Translations under genes and position numbers: made by a program
DNA from: Massilia sp. R2A-15
GTDB lineage: Bacteria > Pseudomonadota > Gammaproteobacteria > Burkholderiales > Burkholderiaceae_D
DNA: 64,000 nt
Assembly (NCBI RefSeq): GCF_030704305.1
Contig: NZ_CP131935.1
Coordinates: forward strand, 2,046,001-2,110,000
Direction: 5' to 3'
In this document: positions 7,732 through 63,839 of the stretch, in pieces
Layout: each line of letters opens with the position of its first letter
Numbering within the stretch: the stretch's first letter is position 1
Notes under the pieces: model-generated
What the model saw: only the letters and a program-made list of their open reading frames with translations
Told to the model about the DNA's origin: nothing
The model's database searches: none

Positions 7732-8367
7732 TTAAGGTATCTGTAAAAGTTTATGGGTTTGCAAGCTCAGCTTCCACTTCGGGTGGCGCTTGCAGGTCTC
7801 GATCGCCAGGCGCGTGTTGTGTTCGGCCAGCGGGCCGTCCATCGGCTGCACGAAAAAATTGTCGAAATCGAGCTGTTCGTAGGCGCCCAGGTCCTGGCCC
7901 GTCTGCGGGATCACGACCTTGATTTCATTGCCTTTTTCTACCACCAGCGTCGAACCCATCTTGGGGCTGACGCAGATCCAGTCCACCCCGGCCGGCACCG
8001 GCAAGGTGCCGTTGGTTTCGATCGCGATCTCGAAGCCTGCGCGGTGCATCGCGTCGATCAGCGGCGCGTCGAGCTGCAGCAGCGGTTCGCCGCCGGTGAA
8101 GACGACGTACTTGCTGGCCGGATAACTGGCCGGCCACAGGGAGTCGATTTCCGCGGCCAGCGCCTCGGCCTGGGGAAACTTGCCGCCCCGTTCGCCATCG
8201 GTGCCGACGAAGTCGGTGTCGCAAAAGGTGCAGGTGGCGGTGGCGCGGTCGCTCTCGCGGCCGGTCCAGAGATTGCAGCCGGAAAAGCGGCAGAACACCG
8301 CCGGACGGCCGGCGTGCGCGCCTTCGCCCTGCAAGGTGTAGAAAATTTCTTTGATGCTGTAAGTCAC
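7732..8367 (-). CDS. queE: 7-carboxy-7-deazaguanine synthase
   Basis: QueE is a radical-SAM enzyme that contracts the pterin ring to 7-carboxy-7-deazaguanine. I start it at the GTG at 8367 (MTYSIKEIFYTLQGEG), which has GAGG six bases upstream and leaves a leader after the predicted promoter; a TTG at 8379 is an alternative. The cluster cysteines are C31, C46 and C49 (CX14CX2C) rather than the usual CX3CX2C, as known for Burkholderia multivorans QueE. The SAM-binding FTGGEPLLQ and the ETNGT motif are present. It heads the queE-queD-tadA run. Confidence 0.95.
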   Translation of the reverse strand: MTYSIKEIFYTLQGEGAHAGRPAVFCRFSGCNLWTGRESDRATATCTFCDTDFVGTDGERGGKFPQAEALAAEIDSLWPASYPASKYVVFTGGEPLLQLDAPLIDAMHRAGFEIAIETNGTLPVPAGVDWICVSPKMGSTLVVEKGNEIKVVIPQTGQDLGAYEQLDFDNFFVQPMDGPLAEHNTRLAIETCKRHPKWKLSLQTHKLLQIP

Positions 8368-50702: not shown

Positions 50703-51241
50703 CCTCGCTGTGCGCGGGCGCCTTCGTGCTGCGCCCCTTCACGCCCTCGGATGCGCCGGCCTTTGCCGCCGCGGTGAGCGAATCGATGGCGACCGTGGGC
50801 AAATGGATGCCCTGGGCTGGCGCCGGCTTCGGCGAGGCGGACGCGCTGACCTGGTTCGACTCCTGCGAGAGCGCCCGCGCAAACGGCAGCGCCCACGAAT
50901 TCGGGATTTTCCGGCGAGACGGAGGCGCGCTGGTCGGGGGCGCCGGGCTCAATCAATTCAATCCCAACTACCGCTTCTGCAATCTTGGATACTGGGTCCG
51001 CGAGTCCGCGCAACGGCAAGGCGCCGCCCTGGCTTCCGTCGCCGCGCTTTGCCGGTATGCGTTCGAGGAATTGGCGCTGACGCGGGTGGAGCTTGTCATC
51101 GCCGACGGTAACGCTGCCAGCATCGCGGTGGCGCGCAAGGCTGGCGCCACGCACGAATGCCTGGCGAGGAACCGCCTGCGCCTCAATGACGCACCGATCG
51201 CGGCGCACGTTTTTTCCCTGCTGCCCGAATCGCGCGCCTGA
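50699..51241 (+). CDS. GNAT N-acetyltransferase, RimJ/RimL type
   Basis: The 180-aa protein begins MTSLCAGAFVLRPFTPSDAP. It follows the RimL/RimJ pattern: early RPFTPSDAPAF, the sheet NYRFCNLGYWVRESAQRQGA, and VELVIADGNAASIAVARKAG. RimJ/L-like enzymes acetylate N-termini, ribosomal proteins or small amines. It is translationally coupled to the preceding GNAT. Confidence 0.88.
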   Translation: MTSLCAGAFVLRPFTPSDAPAFAAAVSESMATVGKWMPWAGAGFGEADALTWFDSCESARANGSAHEFGIFRRDGGALVGGAGLNQFNPNYRFCNLGYWVRESAQRQGAALASVAALCRYAFEELALTRVELVIADGNAASIAVARKAGATHECLARNRLRLNDAPIAAHVFSLLPESRA

Positions 51242-51266
51242 CCCGCGATAAAGGGTTGACCCCGTT

Positions 51267-52055
51267 TCACTTGCCCTGCAGGCCCAGGTCCAGTTCGATC
51301 CATGTCGGCGCGTGGTCGCTCGGTTTCTCGCGCCCGCGCACGTCGCGGTCCACGTTGGACGCTTTCAGCGCCGGCGCCAGCGCGGGACTGAGCAGCAGGT
51401 GGTCGATGCGCAGGCCAGCGTCGCGGCCATACGCATTGCGGAAGTAGTCCCAGAAGGTGAAGATCGTCTCGCCCGGATGCATGGTGCGCAGCGCATCGGT
51501 CCAGCCCTGCTCCATCAGCCGGTCGAATGCGGCGCGCGTCTCGGTGCGGAACAGCGCGTCATCGACCCAGCGCTCCGGCTTGTAGACATCCGCTTCGGTC
51601 GGAATCACATTGAAGTCGCCGCACAGCACCACCGGCGCACCGCTGTCGAGCAACTGCTTCGCGTGGACGATCAGCCTTTCCATCCACTTAAGCTTGTAGT
51701 CGAACTTCGGACCGGGCGCGGGATTCCCGTTGGGCAGGTACAGGCAGGCGATCAGGATGCCGTCCACGATCGCTTCGATATAGCGGCTTTGCTCGTCCTC
51801 GGGATCACCCGGCAGGCCGCGCCCCACTTCCAGCGGCTCGCCGCCGCGCGCCAGGATCGCCACGCCGTTCCAGCTTTTCTGGCCGTGCCAGATGGGGAAG
51901 TAGCCGGCCTCGCGGATCGCCGCCTCCGGGAATTTCTCGTGCGGCGTCTTGAGCTCCTGCAGGCAGGCGACGTCCGGCCGGGTCTCGGCCAGCCAGTCCA
52001 GCAGGGCCGGCAGCCGGGCGTTCATTCCATTGATGTTGAAGGTGGCGATGCGCAT
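51267..52055 (-). CDS. xthA: Exodeoxyribonuclease III
   Basis: The 262-aa AP endonuclease/3'-exonuclease begins MRIATFNINGMNARLPALLD after GGAGA; the frame continues far upstream but without a real start. Active-site motifs are LQELKTPHEKFP (metal-binding Glu), LCGDFNVIP (D, N), the IDHLLLSP region and the final DHAPTWIELDL (catalytic D-H). It repairs abasic and 3'-blocked sites. It is 71 bp downstream of the last gene of the signalling operon. Confidence 0.94.
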   Translation of the reverse strand: MRIATFNINGMNARLPALLDWLAETRPDVACLQELKTPHEKFPEAAIREAGYFPIWHGQKSWNGVAILARGGEPLEVGRGLPGDPEDEQSRYIEAIVDGILIACLYLPNGNPAPGPKFDYKLKWMERLIVHAKQLLDSGAPVVLCGDFNVIPTEADVYKPERWVDDALFRTETRAAFDRLMEQGWTDALRTMHPGETIFTFWDYFRNAYGRDAGLRIDHLLLSPALAPALKASNVDRDVRGREKPSDHAPTWIELDLGLQGK

Positions 52056-52126
52056 GGTCTCTCCGCAATTGGTCGGGCAACTCCCTATTGTGAACGCAGA
52101 ACCGGTCGATGCGCCGCACGGATGGG

Positions 52127-52633
52127 CTAATCGAGGTAGATCGAGCCGTCTGGCGCGCGCCGCACCTGCGTGATGCCGGGCTCCTCCCGCTCCAGCTTGC
52201 GCGCCTCGAGCTCCTGCGCGGACAGCGCGGGCGGCTGGCGCAGCCGCACCGCCTCGTCGTGGCGGCCGAACGCCTGCAGGAAGATCTTCTTCAGTTCCTC
52301 GCCTTCCCACGGCTTTGCGACGTAGCGGAACACCTCGGCGCGGTTGATCGCGTGCGATACTTCGGCGAACTCGGTCGATGCGCTCAGCATCAGCCGCACC
52401 GCCTGGGGCTGCACGCCCTTCACCAGCTGCAGGAAGTCGGCGCCGGTCAGGCCCGGCATCCGGTAGTCCGACATCACGATGTCGAACGTGACTTCGGCGC
52501 AGCGCAGCAGCGCTTGCTCCGGGTCGGTGAACGCCTCGATCTCCGCATCCTGCTCCTGCAGGAACGGGCGCAATGTGCGCTGCAGTGCGCTCAGCACGCG
52601 CGCCTCGTCGTCGACCAACAGTACGCGCCTCAT
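52127..52633 (-). CDS. Response regulator (receiver only, KPW type)
   Basis: The 168-aa protein is a receiver domain with RVLLVDDEARVLSALQR, the phospho-Asp D56 in IVMSDYRMPG, LMLSAST and the FRYVAKPWEGEEL segment. It is closely like the receiver domains of the HD-GYP protein and the large GGDEF-EAL protein in the same operon. A short C-terminal tail of 40 residues has no output domain. It overlaps the HD-GYP gene by 4 nt and is the last gene of the eight-gene run. Confidence 0.88.
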   Translation of the reverse strand: MRRVLLVDDEARVLSALQRTLRPFLQEQDAEIEAFTDPEQALLRCAEVTFDIVMSDYRMPGLTGADFLQLVKGVQPQAVRLMLSASTEFAEVSHAINRAEVFRYVAKPWEGEELKKIFLQAFGRHDEAVRLRQPPALSAQELEARKLEREEPGITQVRRAPDGSIYLD

Positions 52634-53919
52634 GCCGCCTCCGCTTTCAATTTCACATACACCAGGAACGTCGAGCCGGACGTGCGTTCGAAATCGCCGA
52701 TCTGGCGGATCATCCGCTCCGTCAGCACGTGGTCGGCCGACAGCAGCAGCGAGCCTTCCTTCGTCACCAGGTCGCGCGTGGTGCGCATCCCGGGCTTCAA
52801 CTTGGCCACCGGCAGCCCGGTGTCGCGCAGGGCCTCGACCGGGTTCTTGCCGGTGGTGACCTCGCCGAACGCGGCCACCACCGCCGGATCGTAACGCTTG
52901 CCGCTGCTCTCGATCACGATCTTCGCCGCCTGGTCGGGCCGCAACTGGCGCTCGCTCAGGGTGCCGATCTGCAGGTTGTCGTAATCGCTGGCCAGCGCCA
53001 GGATGCGCGCCCCGATCGGGATGTCGAGACCCGCCAGCCGGTCCGGGAAGCCTTCGCCGTCGAAGCGCTCCTGGTGCGCGCGCACCAGCGTGGCCGCGTC
53101 GCGCAGGTCCTCGAGCGGCATCAGGAGCTGCTCGCCGCGCGCGGGATAGCTGCGGTAAAGCCCCAGCAGCTCGCCGTTCATGCGCGGCACCGGCAGGTCC
53201 AGCATGCTGTCGGAGAAGCCGATCTTGCCGATGTTGTGCAGCAGGCCGGCGATGAAGATCTGCTGGGTCTCGCGCGCGTCGAGCCCCATCCGCAGCGCGA
53301 TCCGGCGCGCCAGGTCGGCGACGCGGCGCGAGTGGCCTGCCAGGTTTTCGCCGCGCAGTTCGATCAGGCTGGAAAACACCTGGATCGAGGTCAGGAAATT
53401 GCGCTTGAGCTTATCGTTCGAGCCGACCAGCTCCGCGGTGCGGCTGGCCACCTTGGCCTCCAGGCTCTGGTTCAACTCGCGCAGCTGTTCGTTCTGCTGA
53501 ACGCTCAACGCTTCGAGCCGGCGCCGGTCGCGCTCCAGGTTCTGGCGCTCGAGCGCGTGGCGCACCACCAGCGTCATCTCGTGGTCGTCCCACGGCTTGG
53601 TGATGTAGCGGTAGATTTCGCCGCGGTTGACCGCGTCGAGGATCTGGCTCACGTCGGCGTGGCCGGTCAACAAAACGCGCATGGTGTCGGGAGTATGCTG
53701 GCGCGCCTGTTCGAGGAACGCGACGCCGTCCATTTCAGGCATGCGCATGTCCGAGATGATCAGGTCGACCTGGCGCGACGCCAGCACTTCCAGGCCGGCG
53801 CGTCCGCTGTCGGCGCTCACCACCTCGTAACCCTGGGTGCGGAACAGCCGCCGCAGTGCCGACAGGATGTGCGGTTCATCGTCCACGCACAGGACCACGC
53901 CAGTAACATTCGCTTGCAT
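52630..53919 (-). CDS. Response regulator with a degenerate HD-GYP domain
   Basis: The 429-aa protein has a receiver (1-120, phospho-Asp D57 in LIISDMRMPEMDG, YRYITKPWDD), a coiled linker (about 125-180), an HD-GYP domain (about 180-365) and a C-terminal beta module (about 370-425). The HD-GYP metal and substrate motifs are altered. HD is HN (228-229, AAC codon read directly), the metal-binding His of the HPxxG motif is Tyr258, HHE is HQE (282-284), the ADxxDAL Asp is Ser311 and GYP is GFP (290-292). Cyclic-di-GMP phosphodiesterase activity is therefore unlikely. The histidine-kinase gene is just upstream (1-nt overlap). Confidence 0.9.
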   Translation of the reverse strand: MQANVTGVVLCVDDEPHILSALRRLFRTQGYEVVSADSGRAGLEVLASRQVDLIISDMRMPEMDGVAFLEQARQHTPDTMRVLLTGHADVSQILDAVNRGEIYRYITKPWDDHEMTLVVRHALERQNLERDRRRLEALSVQQNEQLRELNQSLEAKVASRTAELVGSNDKLKRNFLTSIQVFSSLIELRGENLAGHSRRVADLARRIALRMGLDARETQQIFIAGLLHNIGKIGFSDSMLDLPVPRMNGELLGLYRSYPARGEQLLMPLEDLRDAATLVRAHQERFDGEGFPDRLAGLDIPIGARILALASDYDNLQIGTLSERQLRPDQAAKIVIESSGKRYDPAVVAAFGEVTTGKNPVEALRDTGLPVAKLKPGMRTTRDLVTKEGSLLLSADHVLTERMIRQIGDFERTSGSTFLVYVKLKAEAA

Positions 53920-54881
53920 CACGCCTCCTGCTCCGCCGCGCGGCGAATCGGCAAGGTGATGCGGAAAGTGGTGCCGCAGCCGGGCGCGCTGCGCACCTCG
54001 ATCTGGCCGCCGTGCTTCTGGATGATCCCGTACGACAGCGACAGCCCCAGCCCGGTGCCGCTGCCAATCGGCTTGGTGGTGAAGAAGGGATCGAAAATGC
54101 GCGACTGGATCTCGAGCGGAATGCCGCTCCCGGTATCGGCGATCTCGATCCAGACGTGGGTCGGGTCGCAGCCGGTACGGATGGTGATCTTTCCGCGTTC
54201 GCCGCTGATCGCGTGGGCGCCATTGATCACGATATTCATGATCACCTGGTTGATGTGCGACGGCTGGCACTCGATATCCGGAATCTGGCCGTACTCCTTG
54301 ACGACGTCGGCCTTGTATTTGACTTCGTTGCTGACGATGTTCAGGGTCGAGTCGATCCCGGCGTGCAGATTGGCCCACTGCCATTCCTGGTTGGCGTCCA
54401 CGCGCGAGAAGTCTTTCAGGTCCTGGACGATCTTGCGCACGCGGGTGATGCCCTCGCGCGACTCCGACATCAGCACCGGGATGTCCTCGATCAGGAATTC
54501 CAGGTCGGCCGTTTCGCGCTCGACGCGCAGCGCGGCGCGCACGGCTGGGTCGGCGATGCTGTCCTCGGCGTCCTGGTACAGCTTGAACATGGCCAGCATG
54601 CGCCCGATGTAGGTGCCGAGTGTTTCGAAATTCGAGAACACGTAGCCGATCGGGTTGTTGATCTCGTGCGCGACGCCGGCCGCCAGCTGGCCGATCGACG
54701 CCAGCTTCTCCTGCTGCATCAGCTGCTGCTGCGCCATCGACAGGCGCGCGTTCAGTTCGGTCAGCTCCAGATTGCGGCGCGTCAGCTCGGCCTCGGCCGC
54801 CTCGCACTTGCGGATGTCTTCCTCCAGGCGCTGCATGGTTTGCGCGGGCTGCGAGTTCATTGGGATATCGGTCGTGGTCAT
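53919..54881 (-). CDS. Soluble sensor histidine kinase
   Basis: The 320-aa kinase begins MTTTDIPMNSQPAQTMQRLE; the longer frame to 54917 is not needed. It has a coiled-coil start (about 15-60), the HisKA-type H-box GQLAAGVAHEINNPIGYVFS (His at about 69) and an HATPase (N-box VIMNIVINGAHAIS, G1 DTGSGIPLE, F-box FDPFFTTK, G2 GTGLGLSLSYGI). It has no sensor domain or membrane helix, so it should act through partners in the operon. It would phosphorylate the adjacent receiver proteins. Confidence 0.92.
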   Translation of the reverse strand: MTTTDIPMNSQPAQTMQRLEEDIRKCEAAEAELTRRNLELTELNARLSMAQQQLMQQEKLASIGQLAAGVAHEINNPIGYVFSNFETLGTYIGRMLAMFKLYQDAEDSIADPAVRAALRVERETADLEFLIEDIPVLMSESREGITRVRKIVQDLKDFSRVDANQEWQWANLHAGIDSTLNIVSNEVKYKADVVKEYGQIPDIECQPSHINQVIMNIVINGAHAISGERGKITIRTGCDPTHVWIEIADTGSGIPLEIQSRIFDPFFTTKPIGSGTGLGLSLSYGIIQKHGGQIEVRSAPGCGTTFRITLPIRRAAEQEA

Positions 54882-54889
54882 GGCTTTTC

Positions 54890-55738
54890 TCAGTGCGATG
54901 CGATCAGGATCTGGCACGCGTTGTCAAATTCGGATTCGGTGTCGGCAAACACGCGGCGCAGGCCGGCGGCGTCGATGCGCAGGCTGTCCCATGCGCCCTG
55001 CACGACGGCCGGCACCCGCTCGTCGTCTTGGCCGGCCAGGTCGAGCGCGTGGACGATCGCGTCGGCCACGTGCACCACGCTGGCGATGTCGCCAAGGTCC
55101 TGCCCGGCCGGCGCGTGGTGGTTGGCGATCGCGCGGCGGATCAGTTCGGGGAACTTCCAGTGCTCGGCCAGCGCGCGCCCGACCACCGCGTGGTCGATCG
55201 ACAGCACCTCCCGTTCGGCCGCCATCATCTCGCAGTCGTGGGCCGCGCGGTACGCAATCGCCTCGTCGTACTCCTTCGGGCAGATGGTCACCAGCACCAG
55301 CCGGCCGATGTCGTGCAGCAGTCCGGAAACGAAGGCGAACTCCTGGTTGCGGCCGGTGAGCCTGGCCAGGCTCTTGGCGCACAGCGCCGTGCCGACCGCG
55401 TGGCGCCAGAATTTGGCAAAGTCGAAGCCGGCCGCGCCGGCGCCCCCAAAGGCGCCGATGATGCCGGCCGACGTGACGAGCGCGCGCACGCTGTCGAAAC
55501 CGAGCACCGCGATCGCCTGCTCGATGGTGCGCACCTTGCACTGCAGGCCGTAGAACGAGGAATTGGCCAGCCGCAGCGTCTTGGCGGTCAGCGCCTGGTC
55601 CTTCGACACCTTGGCCGCCAGCTCGCTGGTGCTGACGTCGGCCTGGTCGAAGGTGGCGATCAGTTCGGTGACGATCAGCGGCAGGGTCGGCAAGTCGCGC
55701 ACATTGGCCACCACTTGTTCAAGCGTGATCCGGGTCAT
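54890..55738 (-). CDS. HDOD-domain protein
   Basis: The 282-aa protein is a single HDOD domain (about 5-220) with ALTAKTLRLANSSFYGLQCK, the HD-like stretch GLLHDIGRLVLVTICPKEY and AIANHHAP. HDOD proteins are non-enzymatic HD relatives that often work with chemotaxis or cyclic-di-GMP systems. The HDIGR motif is kept, but HDOD domains lack the other HD-GYP ligands. Its start overlaps the small module gene by 4 nt; an 8-nt gap separates it from the kinase gene. Confidence 0.88.
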   Translation of the reverse strand: MTRITLEQVVANVRDLPTLPLIVTELIATFDQADVSTSELAAKVSKDQALTAKTLRLANSSFYGLQCKVRTIEQAIAVLGFDSVRALVTSAGIIGAFGGAGAAGFDFAKFWRHAVGTALCAKSLARLTGRNQEFAFVSGLLHDIGRLVLVTICPKEYDEAIAYRAAHDCEMMAAEREVLSIDHAVVGRALAEHWKFPELIRRAIANHHAPAGQDLGDIASVVHVADAIVHALDLAGQDDERVPAVVQGAWDSLRIDAAGLRRVFADTESEFDNACQILIASH

Positions 55739-56055
55739 TGCAGGCTTTCCATGCGATAGGCGGTCAGCTGGGCCTGGAGCAGCGCATTGGCCTCGTTCGC
55801 CGCCGGCAACCGGAACAATTTCGCCAGGCGCGCCGCGACCAGTTCGCGCTCGCGCGCCAGGTCCTCGCTTGAAATGGCGTCGTCGACCACGCTCACGCTG
55901 TCGATCGCGCGGCGCCGCATCGAGGTCAGGAGGGCCTCGGTGAGCGGCGCGCCGGCCGGCAGCAGCACGCTGCCCTGGTGGTCGAGGACGGCGGCGGCCA
56001 GGACCATGCCGGCTTCGGCATCGTCGAGGTCCAACTGTTTGTACCTGCTGATCAT
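55735..56055 (-). CDS. Small beta-module protein, 106 aa
   Basis: The product begins MISRYKQLDLDDAEAGMVLA. It contains a pattern of strands and turns (GMVLAAAVLDHQGSVLLPAG, then APLTEALLTSMRRRAIDSVS) that is repeated, diverged, at the C-terminus of the HD-GYP protein of the same operon (LKPGMRTTRDLVTKEGSLLL). The C-terminal 45 residues form a helix. The function is unknown; I read it as a free-standing copy of a module that HD-GYP-type proteins carry. It is coupled to its neighbours by ATGA overlaps on both sides. Confidence 0.75.
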   Translation of the reverse strand: MISRYKQLDLDDAEAGMVLAAAVLDHQGSVLLPAGAPLTEALLTSMRRRAIDSVSVVDDAISSEDLARERELVAARLAKLFRLPAANEANALLQAQLTAYRMESLQ

Positions 56056-59000
56056 GCTGCTTCCTTGTTGATGTCGGCCGCCAGCGCGGCCTTGAAGATG
56101 ACGAGGCGGCCGCGCGCGCGCGTGCCTTTGCCCATGCTGTGCGCGACCACTTCGTAGTCGGCGCCGTGCAGCCGTTCGAGGCACGCGCCGCCGTCTTCGG
56201 CGCGCGCGATCGACTCCAGCAGCGCCGGCATGAACAGCGCCGCCGGGCTGCCGAGCAGCATCCCGTGCTGGCGGAACAGCTCCTGGGCGGCCGAATTGGC
56301 AAAGGCGACCACCTGCTCTTCGTCCAGCCCGAGCACCGGCAGCGGCACGTGCTGCAACGCCTCGCGCACGATATCGAGCGAGATGCCGGTGCGCGCGATC
56401 TGTTCCTGCTGCTGGCGCAGAACTTCTTCCAGCTGGCGGTTGGCCTGGGCCAGGCCGGCGTTGGCGGTGCGTACCTCCAGGTCGAGCCGGCGATTTTCGT
56501 CGGCCATCTCCTTGTGCAGCATCGCTTCCTGGATGTGGCCGCGCAGCTGGGTGTCGTCCCACGGCTTGGTGAGGAACTTGTAGATGGCGCCTTCATTGAC
56601 AGCGTCGGTGACCGACTGCAGCTCGGTGAAGCCGGACAGCACGATGCGCACCGTGTCCGGATGGGAGGTCTTCACCGCGCGCAGGAAGTCGACCCCGGTC
56701 ATGCCCGGCATGCGCTGGTCCGACACGATCACGTCGATCGCCTCGCGCTCGAGCAGCGCCAACCCTTCCGCACCGCTGGCCGCGGTCAGGATGCGCAGGC
56801 CGGTGCCGCGCAACTGGCGCTTCAGCGCGGACAGGATGTTCGGCTCGTCGTCGACCAGCAGCAGCGTGCGTTCGCGCTTGTGCAGGCGCAGCAGGTGCGG
56901 CGGCAGCCGCTTGTCTTCGGCCAGCATCGCCTTCAGCGCGGATGCTTCGAGCGCCGGCGCGAACAGGCGTCCCTGGATTTCGTCGCACATGTTCCGGGCC
57001 AGGAATTCGCACTGGGCTTCGCTTTCCACGCCCTCGGCGACGACCCGCATTCCCAGGTTGTGGGCCAGCGAGATGATCGCGTCGGGAATCGCGTCGTCGT
57101 TACGCTGGCCCGAAATTTCGCGCACGAACGACGGGTCGATCTTGAGCGCGTCCAGCGGATAATTCTTCAGCTGCGCGAGGCTCGACAGGCCGGTGCCGAA
57201 GTCGTCCACCGCCACGCTCACGCCCAGCGTGCGCAGGCCTGCCAGGGTGGTTTGGGCTCGCTCGACGTCGCTCATCACCATCCGCTCGGTCAGCTCCAGC
57301 TCCAGGCAGTTCGGCGCCAGGCCGGTTTCGTCCAGCACCTGCGCCACCAGCGACGGCAGGTCCGGCTGATTGAATTCGCGCGTCGCCAGGTTCAGCGCCA
57401 GCCGCAGTCCCGGGCTGCCGTCGTACTGCCAGGCGCAGACCTGGGCGCACGCGCGGCGCATGGCCCACATGCCGATCGGGACGATCAGGCCGGTGTCCTC
57501 GGCCAGCGCCAGGAAGCACGACGGCATCAGCATGCCCAGCTCCGGATGGCGCCAGCGCAGCAAGGCTTCGACGCCGACGATGCGGCCGCTGCGCAGGTCG
57601 AGCTGCGGCTGGTAGTGCAGTTCGAATTCGTCGCGCTCGAGCGCACCGCGCAGCGCCACTTCGAGGCGCAGCCGCTCCTGCGCCTGCTGGTTCATCTGCG
57701 GCAGGTAGAACTGGTAGTTGTCGCGCCCCTGCTGCTTGGCGCAGTACATCGCCAGGTCGGCATATTCGATCAGCGCCTCGGGATCGTCGCCGTCGCGCGG
57801 GTAGCTGGCCACCCCGACGCTGCAGCTGAGGAAAAAATCCTGGCTGCCGATGGTCACCGGCCGCGCCAGCGACTCCATGATCCGGTCCAGCACCGACGTG
57901 CTCAGTTGGCCCTGCCCGCGCTCGGCCAGCACCAGCATGAATTCGTCGCCGCCCAGGCGCCCGACCGTGTCCTCGGGACGCACTGCGGCCACCAGCCGCT
58001 GCGCCACCTCGCGCAGGCAGTCGTCGCCGGCGCGGTGGCCGACGCTGTCGTTGACGAACTTGAAGCGGTCGAGGTCGACGAACAATACCCACACCGACTG
58101 GCCCTTGCGCGCGCAGGCGGCGATCTCCTGGCCCAGCCGCTCGCGCAGCAGCTTGCGGTTGGCCAGCCCGGTTAGCGCGTCGTGCGCCGCCTGGTATTCC
58201 AGTTCGGCCTGGTGCCGGCGCTTCTCGGTGACATCGGCCAGCACCGCCACGAAGTGATTGACGCCGCCGGCGGCGTCGCGCACCGGCGAGATGGAGGCAC
58301 GGGTCCATAGCTCGCTGCCGTCCTTGCGCCACATGCGCAGCACCGCGCTGCCCTCGCGCTGTTCGTCCATCATTGCGGTCAATTCGAGCACGCCGGCCTG
58401 CCCCGCATCGGCCGCAACCAGCCTGCTGCCGTCATGACCGCTCACTTCGGCGCGCGAATAGCCCGTCATCTTCTCGAACGCCGGATTGACGTATTCGATC
58501 GGATAGGACGGCGTCCGCGCGCCGATGATGACGATGCCGTTGAAGCAGGCGTCGACCGCCTGGCGCATCAGTTGCTGCGAGCGGTTCGCCAGGGTCAGCG
58601 CCGCGGTGCGCTCCTTCACCAGCCGGTGCACCCCGCGCGTGCGCGCCGCCAGCGCGCCGACGTAGGCCGCCGCCAGCACGCTGCCGAAGCAGCCGCAGAC
58701 CAGCATCAGCAGCGAACCGAGCCCGCCGGGCAGCAGCGGCGCGGGCGCCGCCGCGATCGCGATGTGCCATGGCCGCCCCGCCACATCGAACGTGGCGCTG
58801 GCGTTGCGCGGCTCACCGCCGAAGCGCACCGGCAGGGCCGGACGCGCGCCAGACGCGCCCTGGTGGAAAACCAGCTTGCCCGGCGCGGCGACGCGGTCTT
58901 CGTAGACCCGCACGTCGAAGCCCGGTTCGGCCAGCAGGCGGGCGCTGGCCAGCGTTTGCGAGAAGAGCGCGCCGCTGAGAACGCCGACCACTGCGTAGCC

Positions 59001-59684
59001 GTCGACTTGCGAGCAGCCGCTGCCGCCTGGCCGGTAGACCGGCATCATGATCGTGAAGCCCGGCTGCATCAGGTTGCCCAGCAACACCCGGTACTGCGGC
59101 GTCATCGACGGCAGGCCGGTCGCGCAGGCGCGGTTGCGCGCTTCCAACGATTCCGTGCGCGAGTCGGCATTGAGTCCGAATGCAGTTTCGTTGCCGGCCA
59201 TCGGCACCAGGTAATCGACCACGCGGTAGCTGGGGCTGTGCGGCGCCGTCACCGCCTTGCCTCCGATGATCGCGCGGATCTCGAAGCCGGGCAGGCTGGC
59301 GCGGTGCGCCGCCTCGTAGGCAGGACGCTGTGCATCGCTCACCACGCGCTGGTAGCCGATGAACTGGATCTGCGGACTGTCCTTCAACATTGGCTGGGCG
59401 AAATCGACGAACTGGCGCGGGCCGACCGGCTGCATCGCGGAAAACACCCGGTTCACCGTGGCCAGCACATCGACCGCGCCCTCCAGGCCTTCGCGGATGG
59501 CGGCGATGCGGGTATTGGCGCGCCGTTCAAAGTCCTCGCGCATGCGCTGCTGTTCGCCGGCGCGGATCGCGCCCGACAGGCCGATAGTAAACAGCAGGCC
59601 GGCCAGCAGCGTGAGCGAGCCAGGCTGCTCCATGATGATCTGCAGGGCGCGCATGTTGCGCACCAGGCGGCGCAGGCGGCTCAT
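56052..59684 (-). CDS. Membrane CHASE-PAS-GGDEF-EAL-REC-PAS protein
   Basis: The 1210-aa protein has a membrane helix (about 23-42), a CHASE-type periplasmic sensor (about 60-310), a second helix (about 325-352), PAS (about 370-480), GGDEF (RLGGDEFMLVL intact), EAL (VGVEALLRWRHPELG, LELTERMVM, VDDFGTGLSSL, AEGVES), then a receiver (LLLVDDEPNILSALKRQL, VIVSDQRMPGM, FLTKPWDDTQ), a coiled linker and a last PAS (about 1100-1200). Both cyclase and phosphodiesterase sites look intact, so it may switch between making and breaking cyclic di-GMP. A receiver and PAS after the EAL domain is an unusual order. Confidence 0.9.
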   Translation of the reverse strand: MSRLRRLVRNMRALQIIMEQPGSLTLLAGLLFTIGLSGAIRAGEQQRMREDFERRANTRIAAIREGLEGAVDVLATVNRVFSAMQPVGPRQFVDFAQPMLKDSPQIQFIGYQRVVSDAQRPAYEAAHRASLPGFEIRAIIGGKAVTAPHSPSYRVVDYLVPMAGNETAFGLNADSRTESLEARNRACATGLPSMTPQYRVLLGNLMQPGFTIMMPVYRPGGSGCSQVDGYAVVGVLSGALFSQTLASARLLAEPGFDVRVYEDRVAAPGKLVFHQGASGARPALPVRFGGEPRNASATFDVAGRPWHIAIAAAPAPLLPGGLGSLLMLVCGCFGSVLAAAYVGALAARTRGVHRLVKERTAALTLANRSQQLMRQAVDACFNGIVIIGARTPSYPIEYVNPAFEKMTGYSRAEVSGHDGSRLVAADAGQAGVLELTAMMDEQREGSAVLRMWRKDGSELWTRASISPVRDAAGGVNHFVAVLADVTEKRRHQAELEYQAAHDALTGLANRKLLRERLGQEIAACARKGQSVWVLFVDLDRFKFVNDSVGHRAGDDCLREVAQRLVAAVRPEDTVGRLGGDEFMLVLAERGQGQLSTSVLDRIMESLARPVTIGSQDFFLSCSVGVASYPRDGDDPEALIEYADLAMYCAKQQGRDNYQFYLPQMNQQAQERLRLEVALRGALERDEFELHYQPQLDLRSGRIVGVEALLRWRHPELGMLMPSCFLALAEDTGLIVPIGMWAMRRACAQVCAWQYDGSPGLRLALNLATREFNQPDLPSLVAQVLDETGLAPNCLELELTERMVMSDVERAQTTLAGLRTLGVSVAVDDFGTGLSSLAQLKNYPLDALKIDPSFVREISGQRNDDAIPDAIISLAHNLGMRVVAEGVESEAQCEFLARNMCDEIQGRLFAPALEASALKAMLAEDKRLPPHLLRLHKRERTLLLVDDEPNILSALKRQLRGTGLRILTAASGAEGLALLEREAIDVIVSDQRMPGMTGVDFLRAVKTSHPDTVRIVLSGFTELQSVTDAVNEGAIYKFLTKPWDDTQLRGHIQEAMLHKEMADENRRLDLEVRTANAGLAQANRQLEEVLRQQQEQIARTGISLDIVREALQHVPLPVLGLDEEQVVAFANSAAQELFRQHGMLLGSPAALFMPALLESIARAEDGGACLERLHGADYEVVAHSMGKGTRARGRLVIFKAALAADINKEAA

Positions 59685-62443
59685 GGCAGCGCGCCCAGGC
59701 GCAGGCTGTCCAGCGCCAGCGCCCTGCCTTCTCCCAGCAGGCGCGCGCAGGCATCCGCGGCGAGCGGACGGCTAAACAGATAACCCTGCATTTCATCGCA
59801 GCCGTTTTCAGCCAGCAGCGCCAGTTGGCCGGCCGTCTCCACGCCCTCGGCGATCACCGTCAGTCCCAGGCCGTGGCCCATCGCGATCACCGCTTTCGCG
59901 ATCGACAGGTCATGCGGATCTGTTGCGATCTCGCGCACGAACGACTGGTCCAGCTTGAGCTTGTCGACCGAGAAGCGCTTCAGGTAGCTCAGGTTCGAGT
60001 AGCCGGTGCCGAAGTCGTCGATCGCCAGCTGGACGCCCATGTCCTTGAGCTGGCGCAGGATCTCGAAGGTCCGCTTCGGGTCTTCCATCGACGCGCTCTC
60101 GGTCAGCTCGAGTTCCAGCAGATGCGGTGCCAACCTGGTTTCGGCGAGAATGCGCTCGACCGTGATGACGATATGCTCGGAGAACTGGCGCGCCGACAGG
60201 TTCACCGACACCGGCACGGCTGGCAGCCCCTCGCGCTGCCACGCGCAGCTTTGCTGGCACGCGCGGCGCAGCACCCATTCGCCGATCGGCAGGATCAGGC
60301 CGGTCTCCTCGGCAAGGCCAATGAAGCGCCCCGGCGCGATCAGCCCCAGTTCCGGGTGCTGCCAGCGCACCAGCGCCTCGATGCCGATGATCTTCCCGCT
60401 CGCCAGGCTGGCCTGCGGCTGGTAGTGCAGCACGAACTCGCCGCGCTCGATCGCCCGCCGCAGCGCGCTCTCCAGTCGGAAGCGCTCGTGCGCGCCCTGG
60501 TTCAGTTCCGGCCGGTAGAACTCGTAGCGCTCCTCGGCGCCGGCCAGCGCGCGCCGCACCGCCGCTTCGCTGCCCTGCAGCAGGCTGTCGTAGTCCGCGC
60601 CGTCGGTCGGATACACGGCGATGCCGATGGCCGGTTCGAGGTGCAGCTCCTGGCCGTCGTGCAGGAACGGCAGGCTCAATTCGGCCAGCAGCTCGCGCGC
60701 CAGCACCGACAATTCTTCGGGCGATTTGCGCAGCGCCGCGATGGCGAAGGTGCGCTCGCCCACGCGCGCCACGCTGGCCGAGCCGTGCTCCCAGCGCGCC
60801 AGGCGCCGGGCCATCTGGCGCAGCATCGCCTCCTCCGCCTCCAGGCCAAGGCTCTCGCCGATCAGGCGCAGGCGTTCCGGCTTGAGCATCAGGTAGCCGA
60901 CCAGCTCGCGGCTGCCGGCCGCCTGCTCCTTCATCTGATGCACGCGGTCGCGCATCAGGATGCGGTTCGGCAGGCCGGTCAGGGTATCGAAGCTGCTCAG
61001 GTAGCGCACCTGCTCCTCGGCGCCGCGCAGTTCGGTCACGTCGACACCGGTGCCGAGAAAATATTCGACCTGGCCGTCGGCCTTGCGTAGCCAGGTGGTG
61101 GACCAGACGATCTCGCGCAAGCCGCCGTCGCGCGCGCGCCACACGCCGCTCACTTGCGACGGCCCGGTGCTTTCGGGCGGGTGCTCGAAGAACCGGCGCA
61201 GCCCCGATCCGCCGCTGGCCTTCTCGAACACTTCCCAGCAAGGACGGCCGATCGCCTCTTGCGCCGGCCAGCCCATGGCCTGCTCGCAGGCCGGGTTGAA
61301 CAGCCGGATCACGCCCGCGGTGTCGACCATGCACACCAGCGCGCCGCTGGTGTTGACCACCGCCGACAGCAGCTTGCGCTCGGACTGCCAGGCGTCGGTG
61401 CGCTCCTTGACCTGCGCTTCCATGCTGCCGTACAGGCGCGCGCGCTCGACGGCCACGGCGATCTGGTTGCCGACCGTCTCCAGCACCTGCCACTGGTCGC
61501 CGGCCAGCTTGCTCTCGCTCGTCATCAGGCACAGCACGCCGCGCGTGCCGGCTCCGGTGGCCAGCGGAATGCAGGCATGCGGCCGGTCGAGCTGCTCGCA
61601 CGTGAGCACAAGCTGCGGCGCGGTTAGCGCGCCGGACCGCAGCTGCCGCTCGCACTGGCAGGTCGCGCACGCGTCGCTGGCGTAGCTGTCGATCGCGAAG
61701 TCGCGCGCCGCGACCAGGCGCAGCTTGCCGTCCGCGCCGAACAGCTTGATGCAGGCGCCCAGCACGCCGGGGAAGTCGAGCAGGCGTTCGAGCGCCAGTT
61801 CGCCCACCGCCTGCTCGGTGAGCGCGGGATTGAGCGCCTCGGCGATGCGGTACAGGCCCTCGAGCGACTGGTAGTTATGGGCGATGCGTTCCTGCTGCGC
61901 CTTGAGCTGCTCGGCCATCTGGATCGCTTCTTCGTAGGTCGAGATCAGCAGGTCGAAGATCTGCTGGCGCTCGGCCGTGATGAAGTGGGTCTGGCCGCCA
62001 AGATTGACCTGCATGCCCAGCTGGACCCGGTCGGCGCGCGTGCCGCGGTTGGCCAGGATCACGCGGATCCGGCCCAGCAGGTAGTTGCCGTCGAAGGGCT
62101 TGCGGATGAAATTGTCGGCACCGCAGTCGAGGCCCCGGATCACGTCGTGCAGGCTGGTGAGCGATGTCAGCAGGATCACCGGGACGTCGCGCAAGGCGGG
62201 GTCCTTCTTGATCTCGCGGCACATCGCAAAGCCGTCCATCACCGGCATGGCGATGTCGCTGACGATCAGCGTGGGCGCCGCCTCGCGCGCCTGGCGCAGG
62301 CCGTCGCGGCCGTCCACCGCGATGCGCACGGCGTAGCCGCCGGCCTGCCGCAGCATCTGCGCCAGGAATTGCGCCTGGGTGGGGCTGTCCTCGATCACCA
62401 GGATGTCGACCGGTTGCTCCGCAGCGGTGCGTATCGTGCTCAT
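59681..62443 (-). CDS. REC-GAF-PAS-GGDEF-EAL cyclic-di-GMP protein with a dead GGDEF
   Basis: The 920-aa soluble protein starts MSTIRTAAEQPVDILVIEDS. It has a receiver (phospho-Asp D63 in IVSDIAMPVMDG), a GAF domain (about 195-350, CATCQC cysteines inside), PAS (about 365-480), a GGDEF domain in which the signature is replaced by GERTF, and an EAL domain with all usual motifs (IEALVRWQHPELG, SVNLSARQFS, LELTES, IDDFGTGYSNLSYLKRFS, VIAEGVET). It should act as a phosphodiesterase with the GGDEF as a nucleotide-sensing regulator. ATGA overlaps on both sides. The frame is open upstream of 62443 with no start signal. Confidence 0.9.
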   Translation of the reverse strand: MSTIRTAAEQPVDILVIEDSPTQAQFLAQMLRQAGGYAVRIAVDGRDGLRQAREAAPTLIVSDIAMPVMDGFAMCREIKKDPALRDVPVILLTSLTSLHDVIRGLDCGADNFIRKPFDGNYLLGRIRVILANRGTRADRVQLGMQVNLGGQTHFITAERQQIFDLLISTYEEAIQMAEQLKAQQERIAHNYQSLEGLYRIAEALNPALTEQAVGELALERLLDFPGVLGACIKLFGADGKLRLVAARDFAIDSYASDACATCQCERQLRSGALTAPQLVLTCEQLDRPHACIPLATGAGTRGVLCLMTSESKLAGDQWQVLETVGNQIAVAVERARLYGSMEAQVKERTDAWQSERKLLSAVVNTSGALVCMVDTAGVIRLFNPACEQAMGWPAQEAIGRPCWEVFEKASGGSGLRRFFEHPPESTGPSQVSGVWRARDGGLREIVWSTTWLRKADGQVEYFLGTGVDVTELRGAEEQVRYLSSFDTLTGLPNRILMRDRVHQMKEQAAGSRELVGYLMLKPERLRLIGESLGLEAEEAMLRQMARRLARWEHGSASVARVGERTFAIAALRKSPEELSVLARELLAELSLPFLHDGQELHLEPAIGIAVYPTDGADYDSLLQGSEAAVRRALAGAEERYEFYRPELNQGAHERFRLESALRRAIERGEFVLHYQPQASLASGKIIGIEALVRWQHPELGLIAPGRFIGLAEETGLILPIGEWVLRRACQQSCAWQREGLPAVPVSVNLSARQFSEHIVITVERILAETRLAPHLLELELTESASMEDPKRTFEILRQLKDMGVQLAIDDFGTGYSNLSYLKRFSVDKLKLDQSFVREIATDPHDLSIAKAVIAMGHGLGLTVIAEGVETAGQLALLAENGCDEMQGYLFSRPLAADACARLLGEGRALALDSLRLGALP

Positions 62444-62895
62444 GGCGTCGACAATGGTTGCGCCAGCTGCGCGGCCAGCGCGTCGAGCTGGCCGCACAGG
62501 GCCAGCGCCTGGTTGCGGATACGGCCGGCCGGCTGGCCGGTCAGCTGCGGCGCCAGCGCCAGCGCGGCGGCGACGGCGCCCTGCTGCCCGGGGGCCGCGC
62601 CGGTGTCGCGCGCGGCGGCGAACACCCGCTCGAGCGCGCGACACAGCCATTCGAGTTCGGCCAGGTCGACCGAGCGCGCGGCGCCGGCCAAGGTGTGCAG
62701 GGTATCGAGCACCGCGCCGAGCGCCGCGCCGTCCCTCCCGTGGCCGAGCGCGGCGAGGTCCGCCTCGACCTGCCGCAGGTGGGCGTGAGCCTCGGCGGCG
62801 AAGATCGCCAGCAGCGACGGCTCAGGAAAATGCCCCGCGTCCGCCATCATGCGCAGCAGCCCAAAAAGAAGTAACAGCAATGCAACGACATACAC
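62440..62895 (-). CDS. Hpt-type phosphotransfer protein
   Basis: The 151-aa reading has an N-terminal hydrophobic segment (about 1-16) and a four-helix Hpt domain with the His in LDTLHTLAGAARSVDLAELE. A start at the inner ATG (62850) would remove the hydrophobic segment and give a plain soluble Hpt; the outer ATG has AGG eight bases upstream, so a membrane-anchored form is the stronger reading. Hpt proteins relay phosphate between receivers. It is the first gene of the eight-gene signalling operon and overlaps the next by 4 nt. Confidence 0.78.
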   Translation of the reverse strand: MYVVALLLLLFGLLRMMADAGHFPEPSLLAIFAAEAHAHLRQVEADLAALGHGRDGAALGAVLDTLHTLAGAARSVDLAELEWLCRALERVFAAARDTGAAPGQQGAVAAALALAPQLTGQPAGRIRNQALALCGQLDALAAQLAQPLSTP

Positions 62896-63206
62896 CTGGA
62901 CATCTTGACATAACCTTATTCGTAAACACGGACGGCAATCTTCATTGCGCTACGGCAATGAGAAATCAAACTCCATGGTAACGAAAATCCCTGCTTCAGT
63001 TCGCTAACGGAGCGACCCGTGCGCGGCTGCGAAACGCCGCCGGAGGCGTCCAGGACCGCGCCAAGTCCTTGATTTTTCGCGTAACTTAAATATCAGGAAA
63101 TAGTTCTTGGAAAGAAACTGTCACGCATTCTGCATAGCGCTGTCGCGAAATGAACGACAAGGAATGGAGCTATAACGTTGCGTCAAATTCACATGCTTGT
63201 AGGCAA
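62896..63206. other. Intergenic region between the signalling operon and the NarL-type regulator
   Basis: I see no gene or clear terminator in these 311 bases. They are more AT-rich than their surroundings and presumably hold the promoter of the minus-strand operon starting at 62895 and the 3' end of the NarL-type gene, but no convincing -35/-10 pair stands out on the minus strand. Confidence 0.5.
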
Positions 63207-63839
63207 TTAACTAACCAGGCCGCTCTTCAGGGCATAGCGGATCACGGCCGCGTTCGACGACAGGCCCATCTTGCGGAAGATGCGGTTGCGGTAGGTGTTG
63301 ACGGAACTGACGCTGATGCCCAGTTCGGCGGCGACCTGCTTGACCTGCTTGCCGGCGCCGATCAGGGCGACGATTTCGGCCTCGCGCGCGGTCAGGTTGT
63401 GGTGCGACGGCCGCGGCTCGGGATCGAGCGCCTGACGCGCCAGCAGCTCGGCCAGGCGCGGCCCGATATAGGTGCTGCCTGCGACGACCTGGCGGATCGC
63501 CTTGACCAGTTCCTCGGCGGCCATCGCCTTGGTGATGTAGCCGGCGGCGCCTGCGCGCAGCGCGCTCACCGCATAGCGCTCCTCCGCGTACATGCTGAGC
63601 ATGACCACCTTCTGCTCCGGGAACTGGCGGCGCAGTTCGGCCAGTCCTTCCAGGCCGTCGTGTTCGGGCAGGCTGATGTCGAGCACCACCACGTCGGGCT
63701 GGTGCTGCGCCACCAGCGCCAGCGTCCTGGCAAGGTCGGCCGCTTCGCCGACGATGCGCAGGTCGGCGCTGGAGCGGATGATTTTCTTGACGCCTTCGCG
63801 AATCAGCTCGTGGTCGTCGGCGATGACGATGCGGATCAT
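63207..63839 (-). CDS. NarL/FixJ-type response regulator
   Basis: The 210-aa regulator has a receiver (RIVIADDHELIREGVKKI, phospho-Asp D54 in VVLDISLPEHD, Lys in YITKAMAAEEL) and a LuxR-type helix-turn-helix (LTAREAEIVALIGAGKQVKQ, ELGISVSSVNTYRNRIFRKM). It should bind DNA as a phosphorylated dimer. Its start overlaps the stop of an upstream histidine-kinase gene by ATGA. Confidence 0.94.
   Translation of the reverse strand: MIRIVIADDHELIREGVKKIIRSSADLRIVGEAADLARTLALVAQHQPDVVVLDISLPEHDGLEGLAELRRQFPEQKVVMLSMYAEERYAVSALRAGAAGYITKAMAAEELVKAIRQVVAGSTYIGPRLAELLARQALDPEPRPSHHNLTAREAEIVALIGAGKQVKQVAAELGISVSSVNTYRNRIFRKMGLSSNAAVIRYALKSGLVS

What the first reader, a model, noticed from the sequence alone, without database searches (positions are those of the whole stretch)
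52127..62895. Eight-gene, nearly gapless cyclic-di-GMP / phosphorelay operon
Hpt, REC-GAF-PAS-GGDEF*-EAL, CHASE-PAS-GGDEF-EAL-REC-PAS, a small beta-module protein, HDOD, a soluble histidine kinase, REC-HD-GYP* and a lone receiver follow each other on the minus strand. Six of seven junctions overlap by 1 or 4 nt; the seventh is an 8-nt gap. The run encodes a full phosphate path (kinase, four receivers, Hpt), a cyclase, two phosphodiesterase candidates and two degenerate domains (asterisks). Three receivers share the same KPW-type segment. I know of no described system with this gene set; the order suggests one physical complex or pathway.
Basis: partly seen in the sequence, partly recalled or inferred. 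Interest (0 to 1): 0.72.

Follow-up and report, generated by a model that had tools for sequence, protein, structure and literature searches.

The report
Two fused c-di-GMP signalling modules
A tightly packed run of eight bacterial signalling genes turns out to be two known-type switches for the messenger cyclic-di-GMP joined end to end, one of which has lost its chemotaxis-like sensor array and kept only a small phosphate-carrying fragment of it that seems to have become a gene of its own.

Summary
In detail: eight minus-strand genes, five 4-nt overlaps, one 1-nt overlap, one 8-nt gap. They are two modules. (B) A REC-PAS-bearing EAL protein, small beta protein, HDOD, kinase, degenerate REC-HD-GYP and lone receiver form a core that recurs in the family (all six in 24 of 60 loci). 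Its REC-HD-GYP passes NCBIfam's NosR cut-off, but no FIST/NosP sensor was found in the genome. (A) Hpt plus REC-GAF-PAS-GGDEF*-EAL is the stump of a Wsp-like chemosensory operon: in 17 of 24 genomes with this EAL regulator CheB lies directly upstream, and in the 14 with enough contig the full CheW-CheR-CheW-MCP-CheA-CheB set. The Hpt is the freed P1 domain of that CheA: 31 stand-alone copies form one clade beside and within the linked CheAs' P1s; 28 of 31 lack the HxxKG lysine. A and B lie 2.1-12.2 kb apart in 15 of 18 genomes holding both, in two orders. The exact eight-gene set was seen only here. Likely output: phosphorylation-controlled c-di-GMP hydrolysis; phosphate flow through the Hpt is unproven. 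A new variant of known kinds.

The parts
62440..62850 (-). Stand-alone Hpt, 135-136 aa: freed P1 domain of a CheA (His in LHTLAGAAR)
   Evidence: Pfam Hpt 39.1 bits; 37-42% identity to the first ~135 residues of four CheAs from related loci; one clade with 30 other stand-alone copies, nearest to linked CheA P1s
59681..62443 (-). REC-GAF-PAS-GGDEF*-EAL (called RGPGE here), output regulator of the lost Wsp-like array; GGDEF degenerate, EAL motif intact
   Evidence: Pfam; 23 other genomes of 392 at >=400 bits over REC-GAF; no GG[DE]EF motif in 26 of 26 sequences, DDFGT in 26 of 26, window included
56052..59684 (-). CHASE-PAS-GGDEF-EAL-REC-PAS; CHASE sensor joined to the core's REC-PAS unit; GGDEF and EAL motifs intact here
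   Evidence: Pfam; the part before REC-PAS differs in relatives: PAS, protoglobin, EAL alone or nothing
55735..56055 (-). Small beta protein, 106 aa: free-standing relative of the NosR C-terminal module plus a helical tail
   Evidence: NCBIfam NosR positions 366-409, 18.5 bits; profile comparison with NosR C-termini, probability 96.9, 45 columns; AlphaFold model mean pLDDT 80, pTM 0.48
54890..55738 (-). HDOD protein
   Evidence: Pfam HDOD 209 bits; found upstream of the REC-HD-GYP gene in 45 of 60 loci
53919..54881 (-). Histidine kinase without recognised sensor domain, H-box HEINNP, NosK-like
   Evidence: Pfam HATPase_c 92.1 bits; HisKA just under its cut-off; HEINNP in 52 of 52 sequences, window included
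52630..53919 (-). REC-HD-GYP*, NosR family, catalytic HD replaced by HN and GYP by GFP
   Evidence: NCBIfam NF053512 548.8 bits, cut-off 400; HD kept in 23 of 64 sequences, window included
52127..52633 (-). Lone receiver (KPW type) with short tail
   Evidence: Pfam Response_reg 64.8 bits; after the REC-HD-GYP gene in 36 of 60 loci
63207..63839 (-). NarL-type response regulator that precedes module A here and in relatives
   Evidence: Pfam REC + GerE; same place in G181 and G045 and Massilia niastensis (L166)
51267..52055 (-). Exonuclease III-like gene (xthA; name recalled, not searched); marks the right flank: in same-genus G070 it directly follows RGPGE, without the core
   Evidence: 79% identical gene 91 bp after RGPGE in L138

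Best explanation
The run is two c-di-GMP modules. Shown by comparison: module B (REC-PAS protein, beta, HDOD, NosK-like kinase, NosR-like degenerate REC-HD-GYP, lone receiver) is a recurring core with an exchangeable sensor. Shown by comparison: module A is the end of a Wsp-like chemosensory operon whose array genes are missing in this genus where it could be seen; the CheA P1 domain was kept as a separate Hpt gene, with the EAL output regulator. Inferred: the kinase of B sets the phosphorylation of its three KPW receivers; the degenerate HD-GYP acts as an adaptor rather than an enzyme; the Hpt still passes phosphate to the EAL regulator, taken from the receiver of another kinase (the 1230-aa hybrid kinase just upstream, or the lone receiver of module B). 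Phosphorylation would switch c-di-GMP hydrolysis by the two EAL proteins; the sign is unknown.
For: Domain and motif calls. Core order in other genera. CheB directly upstream of RGPGE in 17 of 24 genomes, the full Che set in all 14 of these with enough contig. Hpt matches the P1 part of the linked CheAs and ends where P1 ends; stand-alone clade 100/98, sister to a linked CheA P1 98/88 (61). 12 invariant residues, the His included, in 31 of 31 stand-alone copies. Loss seen elsewhere too: G212 has only CheW and CheB remnants before RGPGE, and no Che or Hpt match was found beside RGPGE in G374 and G388. Linkage A-B in 15 of 18 genomes. In G390 and G334 the core has no kinase while the Che set is present, as expected if CheA can serve the core's receivers; kinases elsewhere in those genomes were not searched. 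The own genome's best matches to the lost CheA and CheB are only 33 and 38% identical. Precedents, passages read: NosK phosphorylates a degenerate NosR (PMC12570481); RpfG binds WspR's GGDEF domain and inhibits it independently of its own enzyme activity (PMC9758175).
Against: In G070 and G091 (same genus) the two modules lie on different contigs with other genes beside RGPGE, and G045 has no core match, so A can exist without B (15, 35, 37, 73). A hybrid kinase sits upstream here, but the kinase at that place in G045 is not hybrid. 28 of 31 stand-alone Hpts lack the HxxKG lysine, so phosphotransfer could be weak. In the core, GGDEF and EAL motifs of the REC-PAS protein are eroded in several relatives, so its enzyme activity is not a constant of the system. 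I found no transcription, phosphorylation or c-di-GMP data for these proteins.
Confidence: 0.6

Rival explanations
1. One closed phosphorelay inside the operon: the kinase phosphorylates the lone receiver, which passes phosphate through the Hpt to the REC of the EAL regulator (His-Asp-His-Asp), so all eight products form one pathway.
For: All four steps are encoded with overlapping or abutting genes; modules A and B are linked in 15 of 18 genomes; phospho-sites are intact.
Against: Hpt plus EAL regulator exist without the core in G045 and apart from it in G091; the RGPGE receiver is 22-34% identical to the three KPW receivers, which are 33-44% identical among themselves; in 12 of the 15 linked genomes the EAL regulator has a CheA beside it instead.
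Confidence: 0.25
2. The Hpt is a decaying leftover: the array was lost by deletion, the stump is not used, and RGPGE is phosphorylated by small-molecule donors or acts through GAF/PAS only.
For: Array genes were lost elsewhere too, with RGPGE kept and no Hpt match found in G374 and G388; lysine of HxxKG absent in 28 of 31.
Against: 31 distinct stand-alone copies with an invariant His and 12 invariant residues; ATGA overlap with RGPGE in the 3 genomes where it can be seen.
Confidence: 0.2
3. Module B is a NosP/NosK/NosR nitric-oxide system whose NosP works from elsewhere.
For: NosR profile over cut-off; one relative, G037, has a FIST gene directly upstream of the core.
Against: No FIST match in the own genome; comparing the coordinates by eye, a FIST gene lies within 10 kb of the core in 1 of the 60 loci (fragmented contigs could hide others); the sensor slot is filled by CHASE, PAS or protoglobin in the proteins scanned.
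Confidence: 0.07

Closest known systems
NosR-NosP-NosK nitric-oxide two-component system (Burkholderia; PMC12570481, abstract and passages read)
   Same: Kinase with no recognised sensor domain and H-box HEINN; REC-HD-GYP partner with degenerate catalytic residues; NCBIfam NosR profile met
   Different: No FIST/NosP found in the genome; REC-PAS EAL protein, HDOD, free beta module and lone receiver added; sensor is CHASE here
Wsp chemosensory system, R- and H-types (PMC8552884 and PMC9758175, passages read)
   Same: In relatives the parts match: receptor, two CheW, CheR, CheA with REC, CheB, REC-bearing output
   Different: Array lost here except the CheA P1 domain; output is an EAL protein with dead GGDEF, neither WspR (GGDEF) nor WspH (kinase); gene order CheW-CheR-CheW-MCP-CheA-CheB-output
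Chemosensory pathways with alternative cellular functions that carry CheR-TPR (PMC3447774, passages read)
   Same: Multidomain response regulator in a che cluster; the paper reports 2 cases of REC fused to both GGDEF and EAL; G181's CheR has weak TPR hits, under the cut-off
   Different: Linked to a NosR-type core; array lost in this genus
WspR-RpfG complex of Lysobacter (PMC9758175, passages read)
   Same: REC-HD-GYP protein acting with a Wsp-type system as adaptor
   Different: There the two belong to separate systems and RpfG is an active enzyme; here the HD-GYP is degenerate and gene-linked

Membership tests
NosRPK system | REC-HD-GYP of the NosR family | tested here: met
   NF053512, 548.8 bits against cut-off 400
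NosRPK system | FIST-domain NosP encoded with the kinase | tested here: not met
   No FIST match in the own genome
NosRPK system | Kinase with phosphatase motif H-E/D-x-x-T/N | tested here: met
   HEINNP in 52 of 52 sequences, window included
NosRPK system | Nitric oxide changes kinase activity | not testable with these tools
   needs protein
Wsp system | Receptor, two CheW, CheR, CheA-REC and CheB at the locus | tested here: not met
   Absent at the locus; best matches of the relatives' CheA and CheB in the genome 33 and 38%; present in relatives
Wsp system | Output is WspR (REC-GGDEF) or WspH (REC-kinase) | tested here: not met
   REC-GAF-PAS-GGDEF*-EAL; GGDEF motif lost in 26 of 26
CheA P1 domain | Phospho-acceptor His in HxxKG | tested here: inconclusive
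   His kept in 31 of 31; Lys in 3 of 31, window not among them
CheA P1 domain | Groups with CheA P1 domains of the same operon type in a tree | tested here: met
   Sister to Massilia niastensis CheA P1, 98/88; tree rooted at the midpoint
Active HD-GYP phosphodiesterase | HD and GYP catalytic motifs | tested here: not met
   HN and GFP here; HD in 23 of 64 sequences

The most novel reading that the evidence does not exclude
A chemosensory array was dismantled while its CheA P1 domain was set free as a new gene and re-employed as a phosphorelay Hpt that links a NosK/NosR-type two-component core to an EAL phosphodiesterase: a receptor array turned into a soluble His-Asp-His-Asp relay, with the HxxKG lysine shed after the change of partner.
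Probability: 0.3. Interest if true: 0.7.

Novelty: new variant of a known kind. Interest (0 to 1): 0.5.

Why it matters
If the Hpt works, this shows how a stand-alone Hpt can be born: by freeing the P1 domain of a CheA when its array is lost. It also gives a Wsp-like pathway whose output would break c-di-GMP down, and a genetic link, repeated in two gene orders, between chemosensory arrays and NosR-type HD-GYP proteins. Related genomes hold the full array, a partly decayed one, none, or the freed Hpt, so the steps can be tested side by side.

Tried and rejected
Rejected: Hpt starting at GTG 62895 (no counterpart in the same-genus copies). Hpt as a CheA-CheB fusion scar: its tail does not match CheB (best CheB hits have E 0.05 in BLAST and 0.014 in phmmer, and the BLAST one is not at the tail). 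NosP elsewhere in the genome: none found. A CheA or CheB ortholog moved elsewhere: none found. Promoter and terminator scans of 62400-63400 and 51000-52700 gave nothing above shuffles. Foldseek of the beta protein against the PDB gave only weak hits (best E 7e-3, MoeA, then RNA polymerase parts; none at E<=0.001); not used as evidence. A first gene predictor failed on genomes of other composition and was replaced. In one search the subject file held four loci, so its other hits could not be placed; only the HDOD hit was confirmed for L009. L165 appears to be the same contig as G214 (same length, 10767).

Papers: the listings (titles and abstract starts; some searches listed only part of the papers that matched) showed none that describes this gene set, a Wsp-type system in Massilia, or an Hpt derived from CheA. 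The library holds open-licence papers only. PMC8846402, a census of c-di-GMP sensing, was seen in listings but not opened.

Not done: transcript mapping, phosphotransfer, complex prediction, transmembrane prediction.

Full report
Observation. Reading frames and junctions were rechecked. Five of seven junctions are 4-nt ATGA overlaps, one is a 1-nt overlap, one an 8-nt gap. Pfam confirms Hpt, REC-GAF-PAS-GGDEF-EAL, CHASE-PAS-GGDEF-EAL-REC, HDOD, HATPase_c (HisKA at 26.6 bits, cut-off 26.9) and REC-HD; the small protein has no Pfam hit. The Hpt most likely starts at 62850 or 62847.

Module B, the core. NCBIfam names the REC-HD-GYP a NosR-family regulator (548.8 bits, cut-off 400), and the C-terminal end of the same model matches the small beta protein at 18.5 bits. 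A profile comparison of 39 beta sequences, window included, with NosR C-termini aligns 45 columns at probability 96.9. NosR is the partner of kinase NosK and heme protein NosP in Burkholderia; its HD-GYP is degenerate there too (PMC12570481, outline, abstract and passages read). No FIST protein was found in this genome. In the family, 77 of 195 genomes have a match to the REC-HD-GYP protein at E<=1e-30, receiver-only matches included. Of 67 near-full-length matches outside the own genome I fetched 60 loci (7 were left out, of which G070 came later) and annotated them. By tblastn near the REC-HD-GYP gene: kinase (>=55% identity) in 50 of 60, HDOD 45, lone receiver 36, beta 35, a REC-PAS partner 54 (this last criterion is loose and may count a receiver alone); all five in 24 of 60, contig ends counted as misses. 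The protein that carries REC-PAS has CHASE here, PAS in others, protoglobin in G012 and G085, and in the genus-g5 loci it is a REC-PAS protein of about 260-290 aa (one g5 protein was scanned with Pfam). G037 has a FIST gene directly before it. In G114, G055, G126 and G214 three genes (an Arf/MglA-like GTPase, a kinase, and a REC-MshEN-T2SSE ATPase; Pfam on G114, the others 54-80% identical to these) sit upstream of the REC-HD-GYP gene, in the first three also upstream of beta/HDOD; in G214 no HDOD match was found in the stretch.

Module A, the stump. RGPGE relatives: 24 of 392 genomes, own included, at >=400 bits over REC-GAF. What lies directly upstream: CheB in 17 (CheA also seen in 16; the contig of G214 ends inside CheB), and in the 14 of these whose contig reaches far enough the full CheW-CheR-CheW-MCP-CheA-CheB set; a stand-alone Hpt in 3 (own, G091, G045); remnants of CheW and CheB in 1 (G212); nothing of the kind found in 2 (G374, G388); contig end in 1 (G070). 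In G181 the order is NarL regulator, CheW, CheR, CheW, MCP, CheA-REC, CheB, RGPGE, then the core. The NarL regulator is also just upstream in the window and in G045, so the array was lost between NarL regulator and RGPGE. The own genome's best matches to G181's CheA and CheB have 33 and 38% identity, against 47-81% for those of the linked relatives. Weaker RGPGE relatives exist (G018, G305: NarL regulator directly followed by a 51-52% identical regulator, without Che genes or Hpt).

The Hpt. It aligns with the P1 part of four CheAs of related loci, 37-42%. A database search limited to proteins of similar length, with candidates capped at 7997, gave 28 other stand-alone relatives; many are on short contigs, but four are on contigs of 48-381 kb and all lengths are 131-174 aa. 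In an alignment of 31 stand-alone sequences 12 residues are invariant, the His among them. In a tree with 24 CheA rows (2 pairs identical) the 31 form one clade (100/98), sister to the P1 of Massilia niastensis CheA (98/88), within the set of RGPGE-linked CheAs if the root lies among the other CheAs; it was set at the midpoint. P1s of the own genome's other CheAs fall outside; several of these are long branches of unsure place, and G021's linked CheA also falls outside. HxxKG: CheA rows K 19, A 1, motif not matched 4; stand-alone A 24, G 4, K 3. The three K rows (G091, P0017, P0020) form the side branch beside all others, so the lysine was probably lost after release.

Linkage of A and B. REC-HD-GYP matches at E<=1e-100 were found in 133 of 392 genomes, by handles the same draw. 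Of the 24 RGPGE genomes 18 have one, and in 15 of 18 the two lie on one contig and strand 2.1-12.2 kb apart: RGPGE first in 5 (own, G181, G114, G372, G117), core first in 10 (all genus g18; one, G390, is Massilia phosphatilytica by its contig length and coordinates, L167) (recounted). The three others, G070, G091 and G214, have them on different contigs of fragmented assemblies, with other genes directly downstream of RGPGE. G357 shows core, a second HDOD, the full Che set and RGPGE in a row; in G390 and G334 the same row lacks the kinase and beta. Related genomes are not independent, but two gene orders need at least two events. In the REC-HD-GYP tree the window groups with G181 and G372 (100/100), then G114 (94/87); same-genus G091 falls elsewhere and G070 was not included. 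In G070 RGPGE is followed directly by the exonuclease III-like gene that in the window follows the core; whether the core was gained here or lost there I cannot tell.

Mechanism. The three KPW receivers are alike (33-44%); of the receivers compared, the RGPGE receiver is nearest to CheA's (38%). I therefore see two phosphate circuits side by side: kinase to KPW receivers, and Hpt (formerly CheA) to RGPGE. The hybrid kinase whose gene runs over the window's end (1230 aa, HisKA-HATPase-REC-PAS-HisKA_3-HATPase, L161:2837-6529) is a possible donor for the Hpt. RGPGE has lost GGDEF in 26 of 26 sequences and keeps EAL in 25 of 26 and DDFGT in 26 of 26, so the output of the array was probably c-di-GMP breakdown. 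The degenerate HD-GYP is probably an adaptor; RpfG binding WspR is the precedent (PMC9758175, passages read). These steps are inference.

Known kinds. PMC8552884 (passages read) reports that all 794 Wsp clusters it found go with WspR or WspH; this EAL output is outside both. PMC3447774 (passages read) mentions one REC-EAL and two REC-GGDEF-EAL regulators in clusters with CheR-TPR, so the kind is not without precedent. Verdict: a new variant of known kinds, with an interesting origin for its Hpt.

Noticed in passing
G000:C1:914000-933000 (L160): The own genome holds another chemosensory cluster that looks like canonical Wsp: MCP, CheW, CheR, a 224-aa protein, CheA, CheB, GGDEF protein (labels by similarity only).
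   Followed up: partly
G000:C1:3474758-3475306: A 461-aa open frame with a stretch 51% identical to residues 9-191 of RGPGE (REC and beyond); frames of similar length occur in many genomes listed. It may be a WspH-like REC-kinase (not checked).
   Followed up: no
L044:7566-11685, also L046, L051, L249: An Arf/MglA-like GTPase, a kinase and a REC-MshEN-T2SSE ATPase inserted in or before the core in four genomes: a possible link to a pilus or type II secretion motor.
   Followed up: partly
G000:C1:3661705-3662289 (L009:6661-7500): A second HDOD protein in the own genome, 52% identical to the operon's.
   Followed up: no
L063:8048-10294, L074:7495-10194: Protoglobin in place of CHASE in front of the EAL-REC protein, suggesting gas sensing in those relatives.
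   Followed up: partly
L139, 7210-8018 on the reverse-complemented locus: Remnants of CheW and of a frame-broken CheB before RGPGE in G212: array loss in progress outside the window's genus.
   Followed up: partly
L140:4224-6695, L103:7228-9804 and L161:2837-6529: The kinase before the NarL regulator is hybrid (with REC) in the own genome but not in G045 or G181.
   Followed up: partly
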